Source: a virus
IMG/VR virus record: IMGVR_UViG_3300020430_001555
Coordinates: 1-24,078 of that record
DNA length: 24,078 nucleotides
Strand: one strand, 5' to 3'
A program made the position numbers and the translations under genes. Shown here piece by piece: positions 2,898 through 21,284 of this stretch. Numbering within the stretch: position 1 is the stretch's first letter; each line of letters starts with the position of its first letter. The notes beneath the pieces are model-generated. The model did no database searches. It worked only from the letters and a program-made list of their open reading frames with translations, and was not told the origin of the DNA.

Positions 2898-3851
2898 ATG
2901 CCAATTGATAAAAACTTTTACAACGAAGCATCAGCAGCCAAGCTTGGGTGGGAACCTTCTTGGTTTGGTGAAAAATATTTTGATGATCAACTTGTCAGAT
3001 CAATCAAAAAATGGCAAAAAAGAAACAATATTAAATCTGATGGTCTGTGCGGGCCCTCAACGTATCGTCGTATTTGGACAGAGAGACAGTCAAATATTGA
3101 TGCATATGCACCTGAAGATAAGCAATATTCAAACTATATTGTATACAACGGAGAATTTTTTCCTATAAACTGGCCAAAAGTTGTTCTGTGGTCTGAGCGC
3201 GGTGGCATGAAAGCTCGAAAAGGAACGTATTATGATTACACTGGAAGACCCAAGAGGCCTGTGAGGTTGTTTGTAAATCACTGGGATGTTTGTTTGAACT
3301 CTAAAGCGTGCCAAACTGTGTTAGATAAGCGCGGCATATCCGTTCATTTTTTAATTGATAACGACGGAACTATTTATCAAACACTTGATATGCAGCACGG
3401 TGCTTGGCATGCTGGCTCCGAGAGAGTCAACCGTGCATCTTTGGGAGTAGAAATATCAAACGCATACTATCCAAAATATCAATCTTGGTATACAGAAAAC
3501 GGTTTTGGAGAAAGACCAATAAAAGAAAATATTAGAGTTCACGGAGAGCTTTTACAGCCGTTTACAGATTTTTATCCCGTTCAAGTAGAAGCACTCAAAG
3601 AACTTTGGAAAGCAATAAATAAATCAACCAATATACCTTATGAAACTGTAACTAATCAATTTTCGACAACTTCCAAAAGGTATGAACAAGATGCAAAATA
3701 TGGTAAGTTCAGCGGGTTTGTTAGCCATTATCATGTTTCTAAAGAAAAGATTGATTGTGCCGGCTTGGATATCAAAAACATCTTAGAAGATGTAAGAACG
3801 GAAGAAGAAACAGGTTATCCAGTAAAGGGTGATTTCTGTAAAAATAGTTAG
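2898..3851 (+). CDS. N-acetylmuramoyl-L-alanine amidase (endolysin) with N-terminal peptidoglycan-binding domain
   Basis: This is a probable lysis enzyme that cuts the bond between muramic acid and the L-Ala of the peptide stem. Residues about 30-60 (LVRSIKKWQKRNNIKSDG, then GPSTYRRIW) look like a PG_binding_1 domain. Residues about 120-295 match Amidase_2 (PGRP/T7 lysozyme fold): His128 in NHWD, the central WHAGSERVNRASLGVEISN pattern including His171, and His279 followed eight residues later by Cys287. That reproduces the His-x7-Cys zinc-ligand spacing of T7 lysozyme. No signal peptide or membrane helix is visible, so export would need a holin, which I do not see here. The ribosome-binding site GGAG lies in the 24-base gap upstream. 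The last 23 bases overlap the next gene. Such a domain can also sit in tail or structural lysins. Confidence 0.9.
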   Translation: MPIDKNFYNEASAAKLGWEPSWFGEKYFDDQLVRSIKKWQKRNNIKSDGLCGPSTYRRIWTERQSNIDAYAPEDKQYSNYIVYNGEFFPINWPKVVLWSERGGMKARKGTYYDYTGRPKRPVRLFVNHWDVCLNSKACQTVLDKRGISVHFLIDNDGTIYQTLDMQHGAWHAGSERVNRASLGVEISNAYYPKYQSWYTENGFGERPIKENIRVHGELLQPFTDFYPVQVEALKELWKAINKSTNIPYETVTNQFSTTSKRYEQDAKYGKFSGFVSHYHVSKEKIDCAGLDIKNILEDVRTEEETGYPVKGDFCKNS

Positions 3852-4737
3852 TAAATTGATATACGAGCATAAAAATATAGTAGTTGGTTCTTGTCTAAGA
3901 TCAATCTTGTTTGCTTTTAATAACAACTATCCAATAGTCTTCGCAAGTGTTAACAGACCCTTCAGGTTTGATCATTTAACACCAGAACAGTTATATCCTA
4001 ATTTGAAAATTCCAAACTTTAATTCAACAATTAAAACTTTTGATGGCGATATAGATTTAGGACTGCCTAAAGAGTTGCTTTGGGAGCGTTTGATGTTTTT
4101 GCTGTCGATTAACTCTAAAGTTCCGCTTTCAAATATGATTCACAATATGAGAAATATTGACAAAACAATTAACTGTTACAATGAATATTCTAAAATTGCT
4201 GAAATAAGATATGAAAAGTGTTTTTATTTTGGAGATGATAACGCGCACGGATTTGTATCCAAAAAAAACCTTGCGGGAAAAAATTTTATATGCTATGATT
4301 GGATTGCTTTCAATAGAGGTGGTAAACACGAAATCGACTATATTAGAACAGACGACGACTTTGTCAGCCAAGTATGGTTTTATCCATCGGACAGGATTGA
4401 TGGAAAAACAGCTGTAAAGGATGCATGCGTGGTTTCATTTTTAAGTGAAGCCGATTTGCTTGATTTCAATTACTCTGAAACTATGGCTCGGTTTAAGCTT
4501 GTTCATGAAATGGAAGCAAGAGGAATGAAAGGAACACTGAATGGATACGGACCAAATGGAAAACCAAAATATTACAAATTTAGAACTACTAGCATCGCTC
4601 GCACAAAAAATCAGCGAGCAGATAAAAACAAACCCAAATCAAAACATATTGAGATCCCGTCGTGTAGCGAAGAAACTCTGCTACAAGATCTACAAAAGAG
4701 TAGCTTGGCACCCAATTTATTTTTGAGGTGGCTGTGA
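3829..4737 (+). CDS. Protein of unknown function (302 residues)
   Basis: I do not recognise this protein. It begins with GTG inside the 3' end of the amidase gene (23-base overlap), and no ATG allows a comparable length. It has an N-terminal segment of alternating hydrophobic strands, a middle part rich in aromatic and acidic residues, and a basic Lys/Arg/Asn-rich stretch near residues 255-275 that may be disordered or contact nucleic acid. No signal peptide, membrane helix or catalytic motif is evident. The downstream gene starts at its stop codon, and the two proteins are nearly equal in length, so they may act together. The lack of stop codons, the tight overlaps and the A+T-rich codon use shared with the neighbours support a genuine gene. 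Confidence 0.8.
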   Translation: MISVKIVSKLIYEHKNIVVGSCLRSILFAFNNNYPIVFASVNRPFRFDHLTPEQLYPNLKIPNFNSTIKTFDGDIDLGLPKELLWERLMFLLSINSKVPLSNMIHNMRNIDKTINCYNEYSKIAEIRYEKCFYFGDDNAHGFVSKKNLAGKNFICYDWIAFNRGGKHEIDYIRTDDDFVSQVWFYPSDRIDGKTAVKDACVVSFLSEADLLDFNYSETMARFKLVHEMEARGMKGTLNGYGPNGKPKYYKFRTTSIARTKNQRADKNKPKSKHIEIPSCSEETLLQDLQKSSLAPNLFLRWL

Positions 4738-5636
4738 GTCGTCTACACCTAGCGGGAATTATACCTGTTTCTGGATTAAAAACTGATTTTGATATCGATA
4801 CACCAGAGGTTTTGTTGCCAATTGATGCTGGGTTTACAGCGATTCAAAAATCTGTTTATGAGTGTGCTTTAGCTGGCTGCAATACGATCTGGATTGTGGC
4901 TAATCAAGATCTAGCACCAATAGTGCGTCATAGAGTGGGTGAGTGGACGTATGACCCGGTTTATTTTAATCGCTGGCAGTATGGAGAGGGATCAGAAAAT
5001 AGGAGAGAGATTCCTATTTATTACGCCCCAATACACCCAAAAGATATTGATCGTCGAGATTCTTATGGTTGGTCGGTTTTGAACGGTATTTATACATCAT
5101 GGAGAGTAGCAAACCATATATCAAAATGGCTAATTCCAGATAAGTATTTTATATCATTCCCGATGACCGCATATGATATAAGCATTATTAGAAAAAATAG
5201 AAAACTGATCAACAATCCAGACAGTAACTTTTTCCTGAGTTATAAGAAAAAAACTGTTGCCAAAAACATACCGCTACCATTTACTATGAGAGGCGAAGAT
5301 TATATAGCATGCCGAAGAGATGTTAATCAAAAAACCACCAAAAGCTATTACAACACTGAAGCGGGAGAACAATACCCTACACGTAAATTACCACTAAATG
5401 AAAGATGGTCAGCGAAAAACTTTAGCCTTTCCGAAGTTTTTGAAAAACTGAAGGTCCCTAAGTCATCCAAATTAGAAGTTGATTGGTTTTACGATTTATC
5501 TTCTTGGGAAGGATACAGAGAATATATAAGCTCAGATTTTTTAATAAAAAAGCCTCATGAGGTGTTGACAAAGCCGCACACACATGATAAGATACCATAT
5601 ACAATTCATCAGGAGGGCACTAATGAATCGGACTGA
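4734..5636 (+). CDS. Nucleotidyltransferase-like protein of unknown specificity
   Basis: The N-terminal 60 residues follow the pattern of sugar-nucleotide NTP-transferases. A strand and turn (HLAGIIPVSGLKTDF) stands where these enzymes have their Gly-rich loop, then comes a PEVLLPID segment like the substrate-positioning region. Next is FTAIQKSVYECALAGCNTIWIVAN, resembling the helix and second strand before the base-binding residues. The Gly-rich loop is not canonical (no GxGTR), so activity is uncertain; a GT-A-fold protein with another role is possible. A D-rich motif IHPKDIDRRD lies near residue 106. The chosen start is the GTG at 4734 because GAGG at 4725-4728 sits five bases upstream; an in-frame GTG at 4728 is the alternative. 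The 3' end overlaps dnaE by 14 bases and contains its probable promoter. Confidence 0.75.
   Translation: MSRLHLAGIIPVSGLKTDFDIDTPEVLLPIDAGFTAIQKSVYECALAGCNTIWIVANQDLAPIVRHRVGEWTYDPVYFNRWQYGEGSENRREIPIYYAPIHPKDIDRRDSYGWSVLNGIYTSWRVANHISKWLIPDKYFISFPMTAYDISIIRKNRKLINNPDSNFFLSYKKKTVAKNIPLPFTMRGEDYIACRRDVNQKTTKSYYNTEAGEQYPTRKLPLNERWSAKNFSLSEVFEKLKVPKSSKLEVDWFYDLSSWEGYREYISSDFLIKKPHEVLTKPHTHDKIPYTIHQEGTNESD
5553..5562. repeat. 10-base perfect palindrome just upstream of the dnaE promoter candidate
   Basis: CCTCATGAGG reads the same on both strands and ends two bases before the -35 hexamer at 5565. It lies inside the coding end of the nucleotidyltransferase-like gene. Its position would suit an operator, but a 10-base palindrome can arise by chance, and no second copy was noted. 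Confidence 0.3.
5565..5593 (+). promoter_or_regulatory. Candidate sigma-70 promoter for dnaE
   Basis: TTGACA (5565-5570) is followed after exactly 17 bases by TAAGAT (5588-5593), preceded by an extended -10 TG (5585-5586). Transcription would start near 5600, about 20 bases before the dnaE start and just ahead of its strong ribosome-binding site. The -10 box matches 4 of 6, so this is weaker than the other promoters. It is embedded in the upstream coding region. Confidence 0.45.
5611..5616 (+). promoter_or_regulatory. Strong ribosome-binding site that fixes the dnaE start
   Basis: AGGAGG stands six bases before the ATG at 5623. This is the reason for choosing that start over the in-frame ATG at 5584, which has no such site and would add 13 residues absent from the family pattern. 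Confidence 0.75.
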
Positions 5637-8600
5637 TTCTAAAATTAAATTTGTTGGACTGCACGCACACTCTGTGGCGGGCTCTATCTTTGACGCTATC
5701 GGATATCCACAGGATCATATGGACTTTGCATATGAAAATGGGTGTGACGCTCTAGCACTAACAGACCACGGTAATATGAATGGCCTGGCTTATCAGGTAT
5801 TGCATGCCAAGAAAATGAAAGAAGAGGGTAAAGATTTCAAACCTATCTTCGGGTGTGAGGCATATTTTATTCCCTCTATTGAGGAGTGGAGAGAAGAATA
5901 TACAAAGGCCATGGAGGACAAGAAGCGCGCCCGTGCCGTAAAGAAGGATGCTGCCTCTGGTGCTACAGTGGAGGACGAAGGTGCATCTAAGAAGACACAA
6001 GATGTTCTCCGCCGGCGCCGCCACCTTGTTCTTTTGGCCCAGAACCAAACTGGTTTGAATAACTTATTTAAATTGGTATCAGAGTCTTATAAGGCTGAGA
6101 ATTTTTATCGGTATCCACGGATTGATTATGCACTTCTTAAGAAATATAACGAGGGCATTATTGCTTCTTCTGCTTGTCTTGGCGGGGTTTATGCTGGTAA
6201 CTATTGGGAAAATAGAGAAGAGGGCCCCGAAGCCGTTATTGACGCCATGCGTGACACTACTAAGCGCATGGTTGACATTTTCGGTGATCGCTGGTATGCC
6301 GAGATACAATGGAATAACATTAAAGAGCAGCACGAACTGAATCAATATGTGATTCAAGTTGCTCAAGAGTTTGGCGTTGGACTGCTGACAACAGCCGACA
6401 GCCATTACCCCAACCCTGACGCTTGGAAGGACAGAGAGCTTTACAAGCGTCTTGGTTGGCTTGGTAAGGGTCGACCATCATGGGCTGAAGAAGAATCCCA
6501 ACTTCCAGACGGGGTTGAAGAGATTGGTTATGAATTGTTCCCTAAGAACGGCGACCAGATTTGGAAAAGTTATAAGCAGTATTCAGAATCAACGGGTTTT
6601 GATTATGATGATGACGTGGTGCTGCATAGCATCGAGGAATCTTACAGGATTGCCTTTGAACGCATTGAATCATTTCTTCCCGATAATACAGTTCGTCTTC
6701 CTGAGTTCGTGGTGCCAGCCGGATTCACAGCAACTCAAGCGCTTGTTAATTATGCACTTGAGGGCCTAAAAGAAAAAGGACTGCATAAAAACAAGGAATA
6801 TACCGATCGATTGCGTCAAGAACTTAACGTTATTGATGATCGTGGGTTCTCAAAATATTTTCTCACTATGAAGTCAATTGTCGATGTAGCAACTGGGATG
6901 ATGCTTACAGGCCCTGGCCGCGGCTCAGCCGCCGGTTCTCTCGTGGCTTACGCACTAAACATCACACAGGTTGATCCAATTAAATATGACCTTCTGTTCT
7001 CTCGCTTCTTGCGGTCTGACGCAACAGACTATCCAGATATCGACTATGATGTATCTGATTCAATGGCCCTTAAGGAGAAGCTAGTTGAGATGTGGGGCGA
7101 GGATTGTGTTGCGCCCATTTCTAACTGGAATACACTGCAACTCAAGTCTTTGATTAAAGATATCTCAAAGCTTTACAATATTCCATTTACAGAAGTCAAC
7201 ACAGTAACCTCCATCATGATCCGAGAGGCCACACCAGAAGCTAAGCGTAAGCACGGCATCAAGGCAGGTGTATATGCGCCAACATGGGAAGAGGTTATGG
7301 AGTTTTCACCGTCCCTGCAAGCTTATCTAAATAAGTATCCGGCAGTCAAGACACACGTTGAGGGACTTGTTGGTCAAGTTCGCTCTTGTTCTCGGCACGC
7401 AGGTGGTGTGGTTATTGCGGAAGACCTCGACAAGAACATGCCCCTAATTAACTCAGGCGGTGTCCGTCAGGCCCCATGGGCAGAAGGCCAGAACGTCCGG
7501 CACCTTGAGCCAATGGGATTCATTAAGTTCGATTTGCTTGGGCTCTCTACGCTCAAGATGATGGAGGGTGCGATTTACCATATCCTGAAGCGCCACCATG
7601 GTGTCGAAGAGCCTACATTTACACAGATTCGAGACTACTATGAAAGACACTTGCACCCAGATGTGCTGAATATGAATGACTCAAATATCTATGAAAACAT
7701 TTTCCACACTGGCAAGTGGGCTGGAATCTTCCAGTTTACAGAAAACGGCGCACAACAGTTTTGCGTGAGAGCGAAGCCGGACAATATTATTGACGTGTCT
7801 GCTATCACATCAATCTTTCGTCCTGGCCCGCTTTCTGCAGGTGTTGACGGTGACTACGTTGAAGCCAAGGGGCACCCACAGCGAATCAGCTACCTATCTG
7901 AAGAAGCAAGAGAGATTACTGAAGAGACATTTGGCTTCCTGATTTTCCAAGAGCAGATTGCATTGCTGGCCCACAAGCTCGGTGGTCTAACTCTTGATGA
8001 AGGCAACATGCTCCGTAAGGTGTTGACCAAGAAGGGAACCGGCAAGGGCTCTGTTAAGGGCAAGTTGCATGACAAGTTTATCAGCGGCTGTGTTGAGAAG
8101 AACATCGACCGTGACGAGGCACAAGCTCTCTGGGATAAGTTTGAATACTTCTCAGGATATGGTTTCAACAAGTCACATGCCGTGTCATATTCTATCATTT
8201 CATACCAGTGTGCTTGGTTGTGGAACTACTACCCGGCAGAGTGGATGGCTGCATTCTTGGACAAGGAGCCTGAGACACGCAAGGAGAAGGCCATTAACAT
8301 CGCCAAGCAATATGGTTTCAACATCGCACCCTTGGATGTCAACAAGTCTGGCACAGTCTGGGAGATCAGCGAAGATGGCAAGACTTTGATTCAACCCCTG
8401 ACCTCTATCAAGGGTCTGGGTATGGCAGCGATTGAACAGATTTTGGCTAACCGCCCAATTACAAATGCTGAGGATTTGTTGTTCAATGAAAATATTACCT
8501 ATTCAAAACTTAACAAGAAGTCTTTAGACGCGCTCTGTCGCGGCGGTGCGCTGGACAACATTGTGGACGACCGATTCACAGGCCGCAAACACTTTTGGTC

Positions 8601-9054
8601 TGCATGTATTGTGGATAGGCCAAAGAATCTGAAAAAGCTATCGGACAACATGGAGACATATCGCCCAGAAGGCGATTTTAGTGAAGAAGAGATTATACAA
8701 TTTAAGTCTGAACTAACCGGTGTGTTCCCCATGAATTTGGTCATTAGTGCCGAAACGGTCCAAAGGCTGCAGGATAAATTTATCCCACCGATTTCTGAAT
8801 TCGACCAAGAACTTCAGGTGTGTTGGTTTATTCCGCGCAAAATCATCCCAAGAAAAACGAAGAAAGGTAAAGATTATTGGATCGTAGAAGTTATCGATTC
8901 CAATAATGAACTGACTAGAATTCGATGCTGGGGTATCAAACCAGAAAAGGATCGTGTTCATCTTAACCGTCCTTACATGGCGAGACTTAACTACGACGAA
9001 AATTGGGGGTTCTCCACCTATGCAGTCGGTAAAACATTTAGGTTATTAGCATGA
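5623..9054 (+). CDS. dnaE: DNA polymerase III alpha subunit (C-family replicative polymerase) with intact PHP site
   Basis: This is the phage replicative DNA polymerase, 1143 residues against 1160 in E. coli. The N-terminal PHP domain (about 1-270) keeps all nine expected metal ligands: His14, His16, Asp24, His49, Glu79, His134, Cys185, Asp259 and His261. The E. coli site is degraded. The catalytic palm has Asp472 and Asp474 in YPDIDYD and Asp637 in KFDLLGL, with GPGRGSAAGS and SRHAGGVVI around them. FRPGPL and GYGFNKSHAVSYS follow in the fingers and beta-binding region. The C-terminal 100 residues look like an OB fold. There is no separate DEDD exonuclease, so the PHP domain may proofread (inference). 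The start follows AGGAGG at 5611. The gene overlaps the previous one by 14 bases and the next by four. Its middle is visibly richer in G+C than its neighbours. Confidence 0.96.
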   Translation: MNRTDSKIKFVGLHAHSVAGSIFDAIGYPQDHMDFAYENGCDALALTDHGNMNGLAYQVLHAKKMKEEGKDFKPIFGCEAYFIPSIEEWREEYTKAMEDKKRARAVKKDAASGATVEDEGASKKTQDVLRRRRHLVLLAQNQTGLNNLFKLVSESYKAENFYRYPRIDYALLKKYNEGIIASSACLGGVYAGNYWENREEGPEAVIDAMRDTTKRMVDIFGDRWYAEIQWNNIKEQHELNQYVIQVAQEFGVGLLTTADSHYPNPDAWKDRELYKRLGWLGKGRPSWAEEESQLPDGVEEIGYELFPKNGDQIWKSYKQYSESTGFDYDDDVVLHSIEESYRIAFERIESFLPDNTVRLPEFVVPAGFTATQALVNYALEGLKEKGLHKNKEYTDRLRQELNVIDDRGFSKYFLTMKSIVDVATGMMLTGPGRGSAAGSLVAYALNITQVDPIKYDLLFSRFLRSDATDYPDIDYDVSDSMALKEKLVEMWGEDCVAPISNWNTLQLKSLIKDISKLYNIPFTEVNTVTSIMIREATPEAKRKHGIKAGVYAPTWEEVMEFSPSLQAYLNKYPAVKTHVEGLVGQVRSCSRHAGGVVIAEDLDKNMPLINSGGVRQAPWAEGQNVRHLEPMGFIKFDLLGLSTLKMMEGAIYHILKRHHGVEEPTFTQIRDYYERHLHPDVLNMNDSNIYENIFHTGKWAGIFQFTENGAQQFCVRAKPDNIIDVSAITSIFRPGPLSAGVDGDYVEAKGHPQRISYLSEEAREITEETFGFLIFQEQIALLAHKLGGLTLDEGNMLRKVLTKKGTGKGSVKGKLHDKFISGCVEKNIDRDEAQALWDKFEYFSGYGFNKSHAVSYSIISYQCAWLWNYYPAEWMAAFLDKEPETRKEKAINIAKQYGFNIAPLDVNKSGTVWEISEDGKTLIQPLTSIKGLGMAAIEQILANRPITNAEDLLFNENITYSKLNKKSLDALCRGGALDNIVDDRFTGRKHFWSACIVDRPKNLKKLSDNMETYRPEGDFSEEEIIQFKSELTGVFPMNLVISAETVQRLQDKFIPPISEFDQELQVCWFIPRKIIPRKTKKGKDYWIVEVIDSNNELTRIRCWGIKPEKDRVHLNRPYMARLNYDENWGFSTYAVGKTFRLLA

Positions 9055-9464
9055 AAAAGAAGCAATGGTCAGACAAGACTATTTTAAAATCTATCCCAAA
9101 CCCATCTTCGGGTGCATATGAGATCAAACTAAAAGCACCAGAGATCACATTTGAAGGCGTGCGAGGTCAACCAGACTTTGCCTTGTTGTATATTACGTTC
9201 TATCCTAATAAAAAAGTGATTGAACTGAAATCTATGAAAGAATATTTTTACCAATTCAGAAGTAAAATTTACTCGTATGAGCGCCTAATTAATGTGATAT
9301 TCGACGACATGATGGAAGTTTATGAGCCTGAGCGATTACGACTTGTTATGGTGTGCAATGCTCGTGGAGGTATAAGTTCAAAGCTAACTATTGATTCAGA
9401 CTGGGAAGCTCGCGGAGGCGAGGAAAAATATAAAGATTGGATTGGCCAAAAGGAGGAATGGTAA
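9051..9464 (+). CDS. QueF-like T-fold protein lacking the catalytic cysteine
   Basis: The 137-residue protein matches QueF, the NADPH-dependent nitrile reductase that turns preQ0 into preQ1 in 7-deazaguanine synthesis. The segment GQPDFA with Asp42, the NADPH-binding motif ELKSMK, YFYQFR, a following Glu at SYERL, the DDMME helix and NARGGISS are all in family order. In QueF the residues before GQPDFA are CPVT, where Cys forms the covalent thioimide with preQ0. Here they are EGVR, with Glu35 replacing the Cys. It therefore probably cannot do the normal four-electron reduction. It could bind 7-deazaguanine, carry out another reaction on the T-fold, or be a regulator. It is coupled to dnaE by an ATGA overlap, suggesting a link with DNA replication or modification. 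No other queuosine-pathway gene is in the window. GTP cyclohydrolase I is a less likely relative because the QueF NADPH motif is clear. Confidence 0.85.
   Translation: MKKKQWSDKTILKSIPNPSSGAYEIKLKAPEITFEGVRGQPDFALLYITFYPNKKVIELKSMKEYFYQFRSKIYSYERLINVIFDDMMEVYEPERLRLVMVCNARGGISSKLTIDSDWEARGGEEKYKDWIGQKEEW
9451..9456 (+). promoter_or_regulatory. Ribosome-binding site that fixes the clpP start
   Basis: AGGAGG ends seven bases before the ATG at 9464. Upstream in-frame ATGs at 9437 and 9458 are badly placed for it, so 9464 is preferred. Confidence 0.7.
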
Positions 9465-10069
9465 TGAATATTTTAAAAAACTTTAGTCCACTTTTAAAAG
9501 AGGCAAAGCTGATAGATGATTTGCCGGTAGTAATTCGAGTAAGAAAATTTGATGAGCTGTCCGCAAAAGAATTTTCATCGCTTGTCTCAAAAGCACAGAA
9601 CACAGGCCAGCCAGTTTTACCAGTTATAATTGATAGTTATGGTGGCCAAGTGTATAGCTTGATGTCTATGATATCAGACATTAAACATAGTCGTATCCCT
9701 GTAGCCACAATCGTGCAAGGGAAGGCAATGTCCTGTGGCGCAATACTTTTTAGTTTCGGCGCTGAAGGTAAGCGCTATATGGACCCAGATGCCACTGTGA
9801 TGATACATGATGTTAGCTCTATGGAGTATGGAAAAGTAGAGGAAATCAAGGCTTCGGCCGAGGAAACGGAGAGGCTTAACAAAAAGATTTATCACATGAT
9901 GGCCGAAAACTGTGGCCACCATAAAGATTATTTTTTAGACATTGTGCACGAAAAGGGTCATGCTGATTGGTTTTTAGAAATTGATGATTGCGTGAAACAT
10001 AACCTAGCAAACCACACACATGTTCCAGAACTAAAAATAGAAACTAAGGTCAGTTTCAACTTCAAGTAG
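9464..10069 (+). CDS. clpP: ClpP-like serine protease (first copy)
   Basis: This 201-residue protein has the ClpP/crotonase-type protease fold. The first glycine loop reads DSYGGQVYS (oxyanion region). The nucleophile is Ser90 in GKAMSCGA, His115 is in VMIHDV, and the third triad residue is Asp168 in HADWFLE, aligned with the Asp of E. coli ClpP. The triad is therefore complete. It lacks an obvious propeptide. ClpP forms a barrel-shaped peptidase that normally works with an AAA+ unfoldase; none is encoded in this window, so the host ClpX or ClpA may be used (inference). The start overlaps the QueF-like stop by one base (TAATG) after a strong ribosome-binding site. It sits in the dnaE transcription unit. 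An alternative role is as a prohead protease, but the second ClpP at 17187 is better placed for that. Confidence 0.88.
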   Translation: MNILKNFSPLLKEAKLIDDLPVVIRVRKFDELSAKEFSSLVSKAQNTGQPVLPVIIDSYGGQVYSLMSMISDIKHSRIPVATIVQGKAMSCGAILFSFGAEGKRYMDPDATVMIHDVSSMEYGKVEEIKASAEETERLNKKIYHMMAENCGHHKDYFLDIVHEKGHADWFLEIDDCVKHNLANHTHVPELKIETKVSFNFK

Positions 10070-11581: not shown

Positions 11582-12041
11582 GATTGCATTTGATCAAACC
11601 TATACATTTGACTTGTCTGGGACTTTTTCGTTTGGAAACTTATCAACAGATATGCTAATTGATATCTATAAAGATGGTCGTGTAGCATCTCACCTTTTGG
11701 AGCGACAACTCGTGTTTTGGTTCCCAGAACTGAGGCACATCAAGGGTTGCGAAGACCACGATCATGTTAACAGATTGGATGAAAACATACAATATGATGC
11801 AAAGAACTTTACTGCAGGTGGTTGTAAGTTTCTGCCATCTAGCATGATTGGCACTGGTCGAACATTTGATGAAGAAAGGTTTATTTATAAGACCCAAAAA
11901 ATGAATTACATCATTTGTGATATTGTTGACTTTCCCAAGATTAATGTTGTTTTCAAGAAAGGTAGCGAGCTATCTGAGAAATATCCTAATGGGTGTATCA
12001 GCAAAAGTAAAAGAAAGGAATTCTTTGATGCCGCCGCATAG
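11574..12041 (+). CDS. Unknown protein, possible PD-(D/E)XK-type nuclease
   Basis: The 155-residue protein is not firmly recognised. A helix with Glu43 (LLERQL), an acidic DHDHV stretch and a strand QYDAKNFT with Asp75-x-Lys77, followed by a conserved-looking MIGTGR segment, could form the E...D-x-K site of PD-(D/E)XK nucleases. It is directly upstream of two adenine methyltransferases, as in restriction-modification loci, which supports but does not prove the idea. The start ATG at 11574 has GGGGAG five bases upstream and overlaps the dut stop. Another in-frame ATG at 11553 is possible. The 3' end overlaps the methyltransferase by 14 bases. Confidence 0.75.
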   Translation: MHKIAFDQTYTFDLSGTFSFGNLSTDMLIDIYKDGRVASHLLERQLVFWFPELRHIKGCEDHDHVNRLDENIQYDAKNFTAGGCKFLPSSMIGTGRTFDEERFIYKTQKMNYIICDIVDFPKINVVFKKGSELSEKYPNGCISKSKRKEFFDAAA

Positions 12042-12894
12042 ACTAGATCAGTTTTACACAAAACCAGCCATCGTTGAGCAAGTTTTGAGATTAGTGGACT
12101 ATAATCAATATGATTTAATTATTGAGCCTTCTGCGGGTGCCGGTGATTTTTTGAAAAGACTACCGCCCGATAAGAGCGTTGGGATTGACTTAGAGCCAGC
12201 AACATCAGGAATAACAAAGAAGAACTTTTTTGACTTCAAGCCTACAGAAACAAAAAATGTATTAACTATTGGCAATCCGCCATTTGGTAAAAACTCTAGC
12301 ACTGCGGTTAAATTTTTCAACCACGCTGCACAATTTTCTGACTGTATAGCATTTATATTGCCGCGAACATTTAGGAAGCCTTCTATCATAAATCGCTTGA
12401 ATAGACACTTTCACTTAGTAGAACAAAAGCTTCTACCACTACAAGCATTTTACACACCATCGGGACAGTCATATGAAGTTCCAACTGTGTTTCAAGTTTG
12501 GAAAAAAAAGCAAATTGAAAGAGGCACAATAAAAACATTATCTAAACACGAGGATTTTGACTTTGTTCCGATTGGTAAGCCAGTTAACGAAGAACAAAAA
12601 AAGCTTCAATGTGACAATTCAGACTTTTGTGTGCGCCGAGTTGGAGGTGCCGCAGGGAAGATTTATAAAGATTACAACATAATATACAGAGACTGGAAAA
12701 GCCATTATTATATTAAACAGAACTGCCGTGACGTAGAATATATAATGTCTAACATAAAATGGGACGACAACGAAAGCCCAAAATACGATACTGCTGGAAA
12801 TCCCAGCATATCAAAACACGAACTAATAACATCTTATAAGGAAACAAAAGAAAAATATGAACACAGAAACTCAAAAAACCATGTTCAGTTCTAA
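12028..12894 (+). CDS. DNA adenine-N6 methyltransferase-like protein (NPPF type)
   Basis: The 288-residue protein has an AdoMet motif I (EPSAGAGDF, about residues 35-43), an acidic end of strand 2 (VGIDLEPA) and the catalytic motif IV as GNPPFG, in the order typical of gamma-type N6-adenine methyltransferases. The N-terminal DQFYTKPAIVEQVL is a common opening of this group. The C-terminal third has no recognised domain and may hold the target-recognition part. It would methylate adenine in DNA, perhaps to protect phage DNA from host restriction. The start ATG at 12028 follows AAAGGAA with good spacing. An upstream in-frame ATG at 11917 would place 37 unrelated residues inside the previous gene. 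It overlaps the next methyltransferase by 38 bases. Confidence 0.85.
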   Translation: MPPHRLDQFYTKPAIVEQVLRLVDYNQYDLIIEPSAGAGDFLKRLPPDKSVGIDLEPATSGITKKNFFDFKPTETKNVLTIGNPPFGKNSSTAVKFFNHAAQFSDCIAFILPRTFRKPSIINRLNRHFHLVEQKLLPLQAFYTPSGQSYEVPTVFQVWKKKQIERGTIKTLSKHEDFDFVPIGKPVNEEQKKLQCDNSDFCVRRVGGAAGKIYKDYNIIYRDWKSHYYIKQNCRDVEYIMSNIKWDDNESPKYDTAGNPSISKHELITSYKETKEKYEHRNSKNHVQF

Positions 12895-13981: not shown

Positions 13982-14336
13982 AATATCTAAAGAATCAATT
14001 TTAAAAATGATCAAGGGAGAAGTAACAGTAGAAGACGACACCCTTTGTGTGGTAAAGTTTTATTCAAATAGCTGCCACCTGTGTCACGCTCTGAGCAGTT
14101 ATTATGTAGATATATCAAATTCATACGAAGATGTATTATTCTTTGCTTTCAACGTGGACGACGACGAAGAAATCTCAGAGAAATTAAAACTGAATGGGGT
14201 GCCGTCAGTTACTACTTTTAAGATTTCACGCGGTAAAAGAGCAAAAATATCAAACTTGAAAGATCCTGAGAACCCAAATGAGAAGACTTGGTTTACCACC
14301 AAGCAGATTAAAAACTTTATCGATAAGGAGAGATAA
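13968..14336 (+). CDS. Thioredoxin-like protein
   Basis: The 122-residue protein has the thioredoxin fold signature: strand VVKFYSNS followed by the redox motif Cys36-His-Leu-Cys39 at the start of a helix, and the cis-proline Pro79 in NGVPSVTTFK. The C-terminal strand and helix are extended by a loop of about 15 residues. The active-site pair (HL rather than the thioredoxin GP) suggests a different redox potential. It could reduce the C-terminal Cys pair of the phage NrdJ. It overlaps the zinc-ribbon gene by 14 bases and has AAGGAG upstream. No signal peptide, so it is cytoplasmic. Confidence 0.85.
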   Translation: MSVSRISKESILKMIKGEVTVEDDTLCVVKFYSNSCHLCHALSSYYVDISNSYEDVLFFAFNVDDDEEISEKLKLNGVPSVTTFKISRGKRAKISNLKDPENPNEKTWFTTKQIKNFIDKER

Positions 14337-14337
14337 A

Positions 14338-15378
14338 ATGTTCGATAACAGAAAGTATAAACAGGGCTTATCATACGATGATGTTCTTCTTGTTCCACAG
14401 TATTCTGATATAAACTCTAGAAGTGAAATAGATATTTCTGCGGACCTAGGCAATTCGCTACAGCTAAGGTTTCCCATTTTTGCTTCACCGATGGATACAA
14501 TATCAGACACAGAAATGGCAGTTGCTCTAGACAAAGCGGGTGGTGCTGCTATAATCCACAGATACAACACTATTGATGAACAAGCAAGTATTGTTTCCAA
14601 TTCTGTCGATAGAGTCAGAGATAATGTGGGTGCTGCCATTGGAATCACGGGAGATTATTTAGAAAGAGCAACCGCTGTGTTTAATGCTGGTGCAACATTT
14701 ATTTGTGTTGATGTCGCTCATGGTCATCATAATATGATGAAGATTGCCTTACATAGATTGAGAGTTATGCTTGGCGACGATTATCATATCATGGCTGGGA
14801 ACGTTGCCACCTTGCAGGGGGTTAATGATTTGGCAGACTGGGGTGCTGATTCCGTGCGCTGCAACATTGGTGGCGGCTCGATTTGTTCAACTCGTATACA
14901 AACTGGCCATGGCGTCCCAGGACTACAGACAATTATTGATTGTGCTCAAACTGATAGAGATGTGAAAATCATTGCTGACGGAGGCATAAAAAACTCCGGA
15001 GATATAGTCAAGGCAATTGCCGCTGGAGCAGATGCTGTCATGTGTGGTTCTTTGTTTGCAGGAACACACGAAGCGCCTGGAAATGTAATAACTGACGAAC
15101 GCGGTAATAAGTGGAAAACTTACCGTGGAATGGCTAGCAAGGAAGCTCAAGTTGACTGGAAAGGCAAGTATTCATCTTTTGAGGGTGTGTCTACACGTGT
15201 GCCTTATCGCGGTGCCATGGCAGATATTTTAGATAACCTTGAAAGAGGTATTCGTTCTGGCTACTCATATTCGGGAGCCAGAAACGCCACAGAACTTCAA
15301 GCTAAGGCTGATATGATGTTGCAAACCTCTTCTGGGCTTTCGGAAAGCAAAACCCATATTAACCATAGGTCGTGGTGA
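14338..15378 (+). CDS. IMP dehydrogenase / GMP reductase family enzyme without CBS domains
   Basis: The 346-residue TIM-barrel protein has the family features: [20 protein letters not shown] at the N-terminus, [12 protein letters not shown], and the catalytic loop GGGSICSTR with Cys183. Then come [24 protein letters not shown] and [10 protein letters not shown]. The N-terminal half resembles IMP dehydrogenase. The length equals GMP reductase, there is no CBS pair, and the flap region before VPYRG is short like that of GMP reductase, without the Arg-Tyr dyad of IMP dehydrogenase. It may therefore convert GMP to IMP, or be a CBS-less IMP dehydrogenase. Either way it shifts the guanine/adenine nucleotide balance. 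The start ATG at 14338 follows GGAGAG. An upstream ATG at 14278 lies in the thioredoxin gene and is rejected. Confidence 0.92.
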
Positions 15379-17186: not shown

Positions 17187-17858
17187 ATGATTAAAAAAAT
17201 AAAAGAGATACTGACAACAGATTCGAGCGGTTCAACATCTACTGATAAATCAAATAAAGAGAAAAAAATTATTATGATAGATCCCGCAGCCCTGGGCCTG
17301 GATGACGAAGCTGGCCCGCCACCAGAACCAGATTTAAGAATTATAGGTTTGTTTGCTGATGTTCATGAAGAAAAAATTGCAGAACTAATTCACGGCTTAT
17401 TAGTGCTGGATGAAATGAACAAATTAACAAAAGAAGACAAGAGAAAACCAATAGAGTTTTATATTTCAACATATGGTGGCAATGCTGATGATATGTTCGG
17501 TCTCTATGATGTTATTAGACAAGTAAAAGAGACCAGCGAAATACACACTATCGGGCTCGGTAAAGTAATGTCCGCCGGCGTTCTACTTTTGGCGTCTGGC
17601 ACCAAGGGCAAGCGCAAGATTGGCAAAAATTGTCGCGTTATGATTCACTCTGTTATGGGTGGCAACCATGGCTCGCTTCACAACATGATGAACGAATTAG
17701 AAGCTATAGAACAGTTACAGGACATGTATTGCGATGCACTAATTGCTGAAACCAAACTGACAAGAGCAAAACTTAAAAAAATGATAGAACGTAAAGTAAA
17801 TGTCTATTTATCTGCAGAAGAAGCGGTAGAATTAGGGATCGCTGATATTATTATCTAG
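17187..17858 (+). CDS. ClpP-like protease (second, divergent copy; Asn at the Asp position)
   Basis: The 223-residue protein has the ClpP fold: STYGGNADD oxyanion loop, nucleophile Ser129 in GKVMSAGV, His154 in VMIHSV, and the C-terminal segment VYLSAEEAVELGIAD. The residue where E. coli ClpP has its catalytic Asp is Asn205 here, so the triad is Ser-His-Asn, reduced or redirected in activity. Residues 1-48 are an extra N-terminal extension, polar then Pro-rich, that could be a cleavable propeptide. It differs strongly from the copy at 9464. The neighbourhood (acidic protein, membrane protein, a 594-residue unknown) suggests a link to virion assembly, for example a prohead protease, but that is inference. 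The start has AAAGGA eight bases upstream. Confidence 0.88.
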   Translation: MIKKIKEILTTDSSGSTSTDKSNKEKKIIMIDPAALGLDDEAGPPPEPDLRIIGLFADVHEEKIAELIHGLLVLDEMNKLTKEDKRKPIEFYISTYGGNADDMFGLYDVIRQVKETSEIHTIGLGKVMSAGVLLLASGTKGKRKIGKNCRVMIHSVMGGNHGSLHNMMNELEAIEQLQDMYCDALIAETKLTRAKLKKMIERKVNVYLSAEEAVELGIADIII

Positions 17859-19706: not shown

Positions 19707-21284
19707 ATGAGTCGAGAATACGACGACAACCAAACACTACAACAAAAAATTATGAGAGGGGCCAACATTTTAGCAGACAATGTTGCATCAACACTTGGCC
19801 CAAGAGGTCGAAATGTTCTGCTACAAGAAAAGGGTAAGACCCCATTTGTCACAAAAGATGGCGTGACAGTGGCACAGTTTGTTGCTCTTGAAGATCCTAT
19901 TGAAAACGCAGCCGTGCAAGTTATCAAACAAGCAGCAGTGCAAACTAATTCTGATGCTGGTGATGGCACAACGACTGCGACAGTGCTAGCGCGTGCTATT
20001 TTGCGAGAGTCACAGCGGTTTATTGCATCAGGTGTCTCCCCTACTGAGCTACAGCGCGGCATTCTGTTAGCCGTCGATGAGGTGGTTAAGAACCTAAAAG
20101 ACTTATCTCACCCAATTCGGAGCATTGAGGATATCGAACACATTGCGACCATTTCCGCTAATAATGACGTCACGATTGGCAAACTGATCGCTATGGCTGT
20201 TGATAAGGTTGGCCAAGATGGATCAATCACAATCGAAGAATCTCGGTCGCTTGAAACATCTGTTGATATAACTGAAGGATTTAGATTTCAGGCAGGGTAT
20301 GCCGCTGGCGCATTTGTAACAGATGAGCGCAGATCAATCATGTCACATGAGGAACCACTTATTTTGGTAACAGACCATAAGATTTCTGCTGTTGAGCCCA
20401 TCATGCCTATCTTGGAGATGGCCGCAAGAGAAAGTCGTCCACTTATCTTTGTTGCAGAAGATATTGAAGGTCAAGCATTGGCAGCGATGATCATGAATGC
20501 TATGCGTGGCACGCTGAAGATAGCAGCGATCAAGGCTCCATTTTATGGAGAGGAACGCAGAGATCTGCTGCAAGATCTTGCAATATCTACTGGCGCCTCG
20601 TTTATCAGCCGCGAGAGTGGCACAAAATTAAACGAAGTAACATTAGCTGACTTGGGTAGTGCTAAGTCAATCGAATGCAGTAAGTATTTTACAACAATTG
20701 TTGGCGGAGAATGTGACTTTGAAGGCGTCGAAACAAAAATTGAAAGTCTAAAATCACAAATACAAGAAACAGAATCAATGGATGAGTGTGAAAGAATACA
20801 AGGTAGGATCGTCAGACTCTCTTCGGGAGTAGCGGTTATTCGAGTCGGAGGCTCAACAGAAGTTGAAATGACCGAAAGAAAACATCGTATCGAAGATGCC
20901 TTGGAGGCTGTTAGATCAGCGCTTGATGAGGGTATAGTTGCCGGCGGTGGTGCCTCGTTACTGAGAGCAAGCAGTTCTCTTGTGGTTACCACGAACAGCA
21001 CGGATCAAGCTATAGGCGCCTCAGTTATACAAGCGGCATGCCGTGAACCAATAAGACAAATGGCTACAAACTCAGGGCAGATATCTGCTGATATTATTAT
21101 ATCAAAAATTTTAGAAACTAGTGATGATGACTGTGGTTGGAATTTTAAAACTCAAGAGTTGACAAAATTATTCGACAGTGGTATAGTTGATCCTGTAAAA
21201 GTAACAAGAACAGCACTTCAAAATGCTGCAAGTTGCGCTGGCACACTAATTACTACCAACTACGGCATCATTCAAACGGAGTAA
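19707..21284 (+). CDS. groEL: GroEL-type chaperonin (Cpn60)
   Basis: The 525-residue protein is a group I chaperonin, which folds proteins in an ATP-driven double- or single-ring chamber. STLGPRGRNVLL, the ATP-binding GDGTTTAT with Asp86, and the equatorial RIEDALEAVRSALDEGIVAG segment with Asp397 are all present, so the ATPase site looks intact. The apical domain (about 190-375) is complete. Compared with E. coli GroEL (548 residues) it lacks the Gly-Gly-Met C-terminal tail and ends in a short IIQTE. A groES-like gene is present at 2592, so this may be a complete phage GroEL/ES pair. Phage chaperonins are known for folding capsid and polymerase proteins. The start follows a short leader behind a perfect promoter. 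Confidence 0.96.
   Translation: MSREYDDNQTLQQKIMRGANILADNVASTLGPRGRNVLLQEKGKTPFVTKDGVTVAQFVALEDPIENAAVQVIKQAAVQTNSDAGDGTTTATVLARAILRESQRFIASGVSPTELQRGILLAVDEVVKNLKDLSHPIRSIEDIEHIATISANNDVTIGKLIAMAVDKVGQDGSITIEESRSLETSVDITEGFRFQAGYAAGAFVTDERRSIMSHEEPLILVTDHKISAVEPIMPILEMAARESRPLIFVAEDIEGQALAAMIMNAMRGTLKIAAIKAPFYGEERRDLLQDLAISTGASFISRESGTKLNEVTLADLGSAKSIECSKYFTTIVGGECDFEGVETKIESLKSQIQETESMDECERIQGRIVRLSSGVAVIRVGGSTEVEMTERKHRIEDALEAVRSALDEGIVAGGGASLLRASSSLVVTTNSTDQAIGASVIQAACREPIRQMATNSGQISADIIISKILETSDDDCGWNFKTQELTKLFDSGIVDPVKVTRTALQNAASCAGTLITTNYGIIQTE
21159..21187 (+). promoter_or_regulatory. Candidate sigma-70 promoter in the 3' end of groEL
   Basis: TTGACA (21159-21164), 17 bases, TATAGT (21182-21187), 11 of 12. 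It is in coding sequence for ELTKLFDSGIVDP, about 100 bases before the gene at 21288, and would drive the small genes downstream of groEL. Confidence 0.5.

What the first reader, a model, noticed from the sequence alone, without database searches (positions are those of the whole stretch)
9051..9464. QueF-family protein in which glutamate replaces the catalytic cysteine
The protein keeps the QueF NADPH motif (ELKSMK), GQPDFA and RGG landmarks but has EGVR where active QueF has CPVT, so the thioimide-forming Cys is Glu35. A 7-deazaguanine enzyme that cannot do its known reaction, coupled to the replicative polymerase gene by an ATGA overlap, suggests a new activity, binding role or part of a DNA-base modification path. 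No other 7-deazaguanine gene lies in this window, so the rest of the path, if any, is elsewhere or host-borne.
Basis: partly seen in the sequence, partly recalled or inferred. Interest (0 to 1): 0.66.

Follow-up and report, generated by a model that had tools for sequence, protein, structure and literature searches.

The report
Cysteine-less QueF: probable methyl-folate reductase
A small phage gene labelled as a tRNA-base enzyme (QueF) has lost that enzyme's key cysteine and belongs to a large overlooked protein family, shared by marine phages and hundreds of bacteria, whose gene neighbours say that it works in the folate-methionine cycle, most likely as an unrecognised, flavin-free form of the enzyme that makes methyl-folate.

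Summary
The ORF at 9051-9464 is real, and the QueF nucleophile is missing. But Glu35 is not a catalytic replacement. In 145 distinct relatives that position is Leu, Glu, Ile or Met. Alignment with true QueFs puts an invariant Gly (Gly36) in the cysteine column and makes the loop one residue shorter. The family is one clade (97/91). It keeps the QueF Asp, the NADPH motif and the base-anchoring Glu, and adds an invariant C-terminal TIDSDWxxRGG motif.
It is not a DNA-modification gene. No TGT/DpdA-type gene lies in 32 phage records, including the 195-kb contig that contains this window. The family also occurs in at least 578 bacterial stretches. There the gene sits between the two halves of split MetH, next to MetE or ThyX, or between a Cys/Met PLP enzyme and homoserine dehydrogenase. 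SAM riboswitches head 7 of 18 loci scanned. In phages it adjoins MetK, SAH hydrolase, a nucleosidase or MetE. Twelve of 15 split-MetH carriers have no MetF.
Best explanation: an NADPH-dependent, flavin-free 5,10-methylene-THF reductase on the T-fold. The methyl-cycle role is well supported. The exact reaction is inferred and untested, and 45 of 79 carriers also have MetF. NCBIfam calls the protein preQ1 synthase, probably wrongly.

The parts
9051..9464 (+). Cys-less QueF-related T-fold protein, 137 aa ('Q'); predicted NADPH-dependent methylene-THF reductase
   Evidence: ORF and translation; PF14489 9e-20; model pLDDT 87, best PDB match QueF 4fgc Z 16.0; clade 97/91
9153..9176 (+). Loop E35-GVRGQP-D42 that carries the thioimide Cys in QueF; here one residue shorter, Gly36 in the Cys column, Asp62-equivalent D42 kept
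9222..9245 (+). ELKSMKEY: QueF NADPH-binding motif (E58, K60, S61, K63)
   Evidence: invariant or nearly so in 145 relatives; motif definition PMC5372742
9273..9284 (+). S75-Y76-E77-R78: contains the equivalent of QueF Glu97, which anchors the 2-amino-4-oxo base
   Evidence: invariant; role of Glu97 from PMC5372742
9387..9419 (+). Family-specific C-terminal motif TIDSDWxxRGG, absent from true QueF
5584..9054 (+). DNA polymerase III alpha gene, overlapping by ATGA; neighbour conserved only in the close group L001-L010
9437..10069 (+). ClpP-like protease gene downstream; true start probably the ATG at 9464, overlapping the Q stop codon
   Evidence: PF00574 3.8e-22; sequence

Best explanation
The gene encodes a member of a distinct, widespread subfamily of the QueF branch of the T-fold superfamily that serves the folate-methionine cycle. 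Most likely it is an NADPH-dependent, flavin-free 5,10-methylenetetrahydrofolate reductase: 5,10-CH2-THF + NADPH -> 5-CH3-THF. Shown by sequence: fold relationship, loss of the nucleophile, retention of the NADPH motif, Asp and base-anchoring Glu, and genomic linkage to methionine synthase, SAM-cycle and ThyX genes. Inferred mechanism: Glu77 holds the 2-amino-4-oxo pyrimidine ring of the pterin as Glu97 holds preQ0. The N5-CH2 carbon of methylene-THF then lies where the C7 nitrile carbon of preQ0 lies. Asp42 or a neighbouring acid protonates N10 and opens the 5-iminium cation. NADPH, bound by ELKSxK and Arg105, gives one hydride directly to that carbon. An iminium ion is already electrophilic, so no thioimide cysteine is needed. 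In phage infection this would supply methyl groups for methionine and SAM.
For: Bacterial context: Q lies between the homocysteine S-methyltransferase half and the pterin/B12/activation half of split MetH. It is adjacent to MetE in L122 and to ThyX in L100, L103, L104, and lies between Cys_Met_Meta_PP and homoserine dehydrogenase genes in Chitinophagaceae. A SAM riboswitch lies just upstream of the gene set holding Q in 7 of 18 bacterial loci scanned, with no preQ1 riboswitch. Phage context: all 15 MetK genes found within 10 kb of Q are within two genes of it, 14 of them directly adjacent; SAH hydrolase is at +2 in 8 of 8; MetE is adjacent in 3 of 3. Methyl-cycle neighbours recur in 5 of 22 clusters of Q at 80% identity. 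MetK occurs in 2 of 32 long phage records, both times next to Q. MetF (PF02219) is absent in 12 of 15 genomes with split MetH around Q, including the isolate Crocinitomix algicola, against 22 of 64 other carriers (Fisher p 0.003, not corrected for kinship). No MetF in 32 phage records. Direct hydride transfer to methylene-THF without flavin is known in mycobacterial Mfr, with N10 protonation to a 5-iminium cation (PMC11094777).
Against: 45 of 79 carrier genomes also have MetF; in L153 and L162 it follows Q and MetH in the same gene order. Many phage and some bacterial loci have no methyl-cycle neighbour, including this window. Most MetF-negative carriers are MAGs, and PF02219 may miss unrelated MTHFR types. 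No activity, folate binding or genetic phenotype has been tested. NADPH use is inferred from a motif. The substrate geometry was argued from chemistry, not docked.
Confidence: 0.6

Rival explanations
1. It is a folate/pterin enzyme of the same cycle but with another reaction, for example reduction of an oxidised folate (5-methyl-dihydrofolate, dihydrofolate) or a folate-binding accessory protein. It would protect or deliver methyl-folate to MetH, MetE or ThyX.
For: Coexists with MetF in 45 of 79 carriers and in the same gene order in L153 and L162. ThyX as neighbour points to folate in general. DHFR (PF00186) is absent from 31 of 32 phage records.
Against: Does not explain why MetF is missing in 12 of 15 split-MetH carriers that still have folate-dependent MetH.
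Confidence: 0.23
2. It acts in a 7-deazaguanine path after all, for example on CDG, preQ0 or a DNA-bound base, with a chemistry that needs no cysteine.
For: Homology to QueF; retained base-anchoring Glu and NADPH motif; NCBIfam TIGR03139 calls it preQ(1) synthase just above cut-off (89.7 against 86.9).
Against: No TGT/DpdA-type gene in 32 phage records; no QueC or QueD in 13; SAM riboswitches but no preQ1 riboswitch at bacterial loci; neighbours are methionine and folate genes.
Confidence: 0.08
3. It is a partner of methionine synthase, for example a factor that reactivates or stabilises split MetH.
For: Position between the MetH halves.
Against: It also adjoins cobalamin-independent MetE (L122; phages L078, L079, L081) and ThyX. 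The split MetH already has its own activation domain PF02965.
Confidence: 0.05
4. It is a decaying QueF without function.
For: Loss of the catalytic cysteine.
Against: Strong purifying selection and dozens of invariant residues, an added conserved C-terminal motif, and one clade spread over several phyla and many phages.
Confidence: 0.01

Closest known systems
Unimodular QueF, NADPH-dependent 7-cyano-7-deazaguanine reductase (B. subtilis QueF, PDB 4f8b/4fgc; TIGR03139)
   Same: T-fold; Asp62, Glu97 and QueF-motif equivalents; Arg of RGG; about 30% identity
   Different: No Cys55; loop one residue shorter with an invariant Gly; extra C-terminal TIDSDWxxRGG motif; separate clade; methionine/folate gene context, no queuosine genes nearby
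QueF-L, archaeosine synthase
   Same: A T-fold QueF relative with a changed reaction (PMC5485725); structural match Z 13.5
   Different: QueF-L keeps the Cys (Cys21) and the thioimide chemistry; this family lacks the Cys
MetF / MTHFR (PF02219), flavin-dependent methylene-THF reductase
   Same: Proposed reaction and place in the methionine cycle; follows Q and MetH in L153 and L162
   Different: Unrelated (beta-alpha)8 barrel with FAD; no sequence relation
Mfr, flavin-independent methylene-THF reductase of mycobacteria
   Same: Proposed chemistry: direct hydride from NAD(P)H to methylene-THF after N10 protonation (PMC11094777)
   Different: (beta-alpha)8 barrel; found so far only in mycobacteria, according to that paper

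Membership tests
QueF (definition in PMC5372742: Cys55, Asp62, Glu97, QueF motif with Glu78) | Catalytic Cys55 | tested here: not met
   Invariant Gly36 in that column, position 35 L/E/I/M, in 145 relatives. Only 3 of 145 have a Cys anywhere in loop 33-42, at position 37.
QueF (definition in PMC5372742: Cys55, Asp62, Glu97, QueF motif with Glu78) | Asp62 | tested here: met
   D42 in 68/68 phage and 76/76 bacterial readable
QueF (definition in PMC5372742: Cys55, Asp62, Glu97, QueF motif with Glu78) | Glu97 and QueF motif E(S/L)K(S/A)hK | tested here: met
   E77, E58, K60, S61, K63 invariant or nearly so. The motif's seventh place (L/Y) is Glu in this protein.
QueF (definition in PMC5372742: Cys55, Asp62, Glu97, QueF motif with Glu78) | preQ0 reductase activity | not testable with these tools
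   Needs an enzyme assay
T-fold superfamily | T-fold structure | tested here: met
   AlphaFold2 model pLDDT 87, pTM 0.84; QueF Z 16.0, QueF-L 13.5, GTP cyclohydrolase I 13.3, DHNA 9.1
Phage 7-deazaguanine DNA-modification system (DpdA type) | A TGT/DpdA-type transglycosylase in the genome | tested here: not met
   PF01702: 0 of 32 phage records, found in all 14 control genomes. The records are contigs without a completeness estimate, and a very divergent DpdA could be missed.
Methylene-THF reductase (functional class) | NAD(P)H-dependent reduction of 5,10-CH2-THF | not testable with these tools
   Only genomic linkage and MetF absence support it
MetF family PF02219 | Sequence membership | tested here: not met
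   Pfam scan finds only QueF families

The most novel reading that the evidence does not exclude
A third, structurally unrelated kind of methylene-THF reductase exists: a flavin-free, NADPH-dependent T-fold enzyme derived from QueF by loss of its nucleophile. It replaces MetF in some bacteria (split-MetH operons) and is carried by marine phages as a methyl-supply gene, while databases list it as preQ1 synthase (queF).
Probability: 0.58. Interest if true: 0.88.

Novelty: new variant of a known kind. Interest (0 to 1): 0.76.

Why it matters
If true, a widely distributed protein now named preQ1 synthase is a folate enzyme. It would fill a gap in methionine synthesis in bacteria without MetF, add a further fold for methylene-THF reduction, and show how a nitrile reductase can turn into an iminium reductase by losing its nucleophile. 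It would also change how 'queF' genes in marine phages are read: supply of methyl groups and SAM rather than 7-deazaguanine DNA modification. A single complementation test in E. coli can decide.

Tried and rejected
Glu35 as a new catalytic residue: rejected, not conserved. A compensating cysteine: Cys102 is C, F, S or L, and Cys37 occurs in 3 of 145. Loss of His96 as further evidence: dropped, because that position varies in Cys-bearing Bacteroidota QueFs too. Functional link to the polymerase: the neighbour is limited to one phage group. DNA modification: no TGT in 32 records. Q as a strict replacement for MetF: not general, since 45 of 79 carriers have both. A phylum-wide anti-correlation of Q and MetF in Bacteroidota had no power: only 2 of 392 sampled genomes carry Q. 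A DHFR role was considered: DHFR is rare in these phages, but the MetH/MetE context favours methyl-folate. DpdL (recalled from memory as a predicted 7-carboxy-7-deazaguanine decarboxylase of phages) could not be compared: the paper is not held. A search of the held open-licence papers for QueF with methylenetetrahydrofolate found only two tRNA-modification reviews, so novelty is judged on a limited library. Phage near-DNA search: no match.

Full report
What was checked. The ORF 9051-9464 (+) encodes 137 residues and overlaps the stop of the DNA polymerase III alpha gene by ATGA. Pfam assigns it to QueF (PF14489, E 9e-20). The nearest solved structures by sequence are B. subtilis QueF (4fgc, 4f8b). 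The same gene is 100% identical in two other contigs. One of these, 195,690 bases long, contains the window, 100% identical over the 19,461 bases compared, so whole-record searches on it speak for this phage.

The cysteine. Two scans of viral contigs gave 80 loci with 68 distinct relatives; a scan of bacterial genomes gave at least 578 stretches, the best 80 kept. No member has a cysteine at position 35 or 36. Position 35 is Leu, Glu, Ile or Met; Gly36 is invariant. In a joint alignment with 28 bacterial and 6 phage QueFs, the Cys55 column holds Gly36, and Glu35 aligns with Leu/Val54. One of the 28, L265, also has Gly in that column, with a loop of full length. So the nucleophile is gone, but 'Glu replaces Cys' is not the right description. 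By the family definition used in PMC5372742 (Cys55, Asp62, Glu97, QueF motif) the protein is not a QueF, although NCBIfam TIGR03139 names it preQ(1) synthase by a margin of 3 bits.

What is conserved instead. Asp42 (Asp62 of QueF), Glu58/Lys60/Lys63 (NADPH motif), Ser75-Tyr76-Glu77-Arg78 (Glu97 region), Arg105 and a C-terminal TIDSDWxxRGG motif missing from QueF are invariant or nearly so across phages and bacteria. Non-synonymous differences are few while synonymous sites are nearly saturated. The AlphaFold2 model is confident (pLDDT 87) and matches QueF (Z 16.0), QueF-L, GTP cyclohydrolase I and dihydroneopterin aldolase, all T-fold proteins that bind purine- or pterin-like ligands. In a tree of 89 sequences the Cys-less family is one group (97/91), with phage and bacterial members mixed. 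In 392 Bacteroidota genomes the scores fall into two far-apart classes, about 258 bits for this family and at most 88 for QueF.

Not DNA modification. TGT/DpdA-type genes are absent from 32 phage records of 67 to 332 kb; QueC and QueD are absent from the 13 records tested. The Pol III neighbour is found only in the window's close relatives.

Gene neighbours in phages. MetK lies within two genes of Q in all 15 loci where it occurs within 10 kb, on either side and in canonical as well as shortened forms; SAH hydrolase is at +2 in 8 of 8; a nucleosidase of the PNP_UDP_1 family, a phosphoribosyltransferase and MetE also recur. Such neighbours appear in 5 of 22 clusters of Q at 80% identity. In whole records MetK is rare (2 of 32) and both times adjacent to Q.

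Gene neighbours in bacteria. In Crocinitomix, Flammeovirgaceae and relatives the order is homocysteine S-methyltransferase half of MetH, Q, then the pterin-binding/B12/activation part of MetH. In Chitinophagaceae Q lies between a Cys/Met PLP enzyme and homoserine dehydrogenase. In three MAGs (L100, L103, L104) it follows ThyX; in L122 it precedes MetE; in L108 it follows MetH. SAM riboswitches lie just upstream of these gene sets in 7 of 18 loci scanned.

MetF. PF02219 was sought in 79 carrier genomes. It is missing in 12 of 15 with Q inside split MetH, among them the isolate Crocinitomix algicola, and present in 42 of the other 64 (Fisher p 0.003, without correction for kinship). In L153 and L162 the order is MetH half, Q, MetH half, MetF, which suggests, without showing it, that MetF was lost where Q is present.

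Interpretation. The common denominator of MetH, MetE, ThyX and the SAM cycle is methylene- and methyl-tetrahydrofolate. A QueF-type pocket holds a 2-amino-4-oxo pyrimidine ring by a Glu and places NADPH next to the substituent at C7. In methylene-THF the carbon on N5 has the matching place, and its activated form, the 5-iminium cation, accepts a hydride directly, as in Mfr (PMC11094777). A nucleophilic cysteine is then not needed. This is why a flavin-free methylene-THF reductase is the preferred reading, at 0.6. A role in the folate-methionine cycle of some kind is more secure (about 0.85). The weak points are the carriers with both Q and MetF, the loci without telling neighbours (this window among them), and the lack of any biochemical test.

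Novelty. No held paper connects QueF with methylenetetrahydrofolate beyond two tRNA-modification reviews; the library is limited to open licences. I rate it as a new variant of a known kind: a known fold and family branch with a predicted new function.

Noticed in passing
L265 (Bacteroidota genome G183): A second kind of Cys-less QueF-like protein: TTLGPVNRQPDFA, Gly in the Cys55 column with a loop of full QueF length; long branch in the tree.
   Followed up: no
L025, L027, L071 (phage loci): Three phage members read TFEGCRGQPD, with a Cys one position after the invariant Gly; possibly a secondary change.
   Followed up: no
Downstream of Q in 14 phage loci, e.g. L046:10387-10815: A DUF2452 protein (PF10504) lies close downstream of Q in 14 phage loci; function unknown.
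   Followed up: no
L026, L033, L041, L071, L025, L027: A single-cluster ferredoxin (PF13370) gene directly follows Q in six phage loci.
   Followed up: no
window 9437-10069 and 17187-17858; 2592-2873 and 19707-21284: Two ClpP-like genes (the first PF00574 3.8e-22; the second by reading) and GroES/GroEL-like genes (by reading of the ORF list) in one 24-kb phage window.
   Followed up: no
window 14278-15378: IMP dehydrogenase (PF00478, E 5e-100) encoded by the phage; unusual nucleotide-supply gene.
   Followed up: no
window 3829-4737, 4728-5636, 11917-12894: Three ORFs of 302, 302 and 325 aa without any Pfam match at E 1e-4; the first two recur together upstream of Pol III in close relatives.
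   Followed up: no
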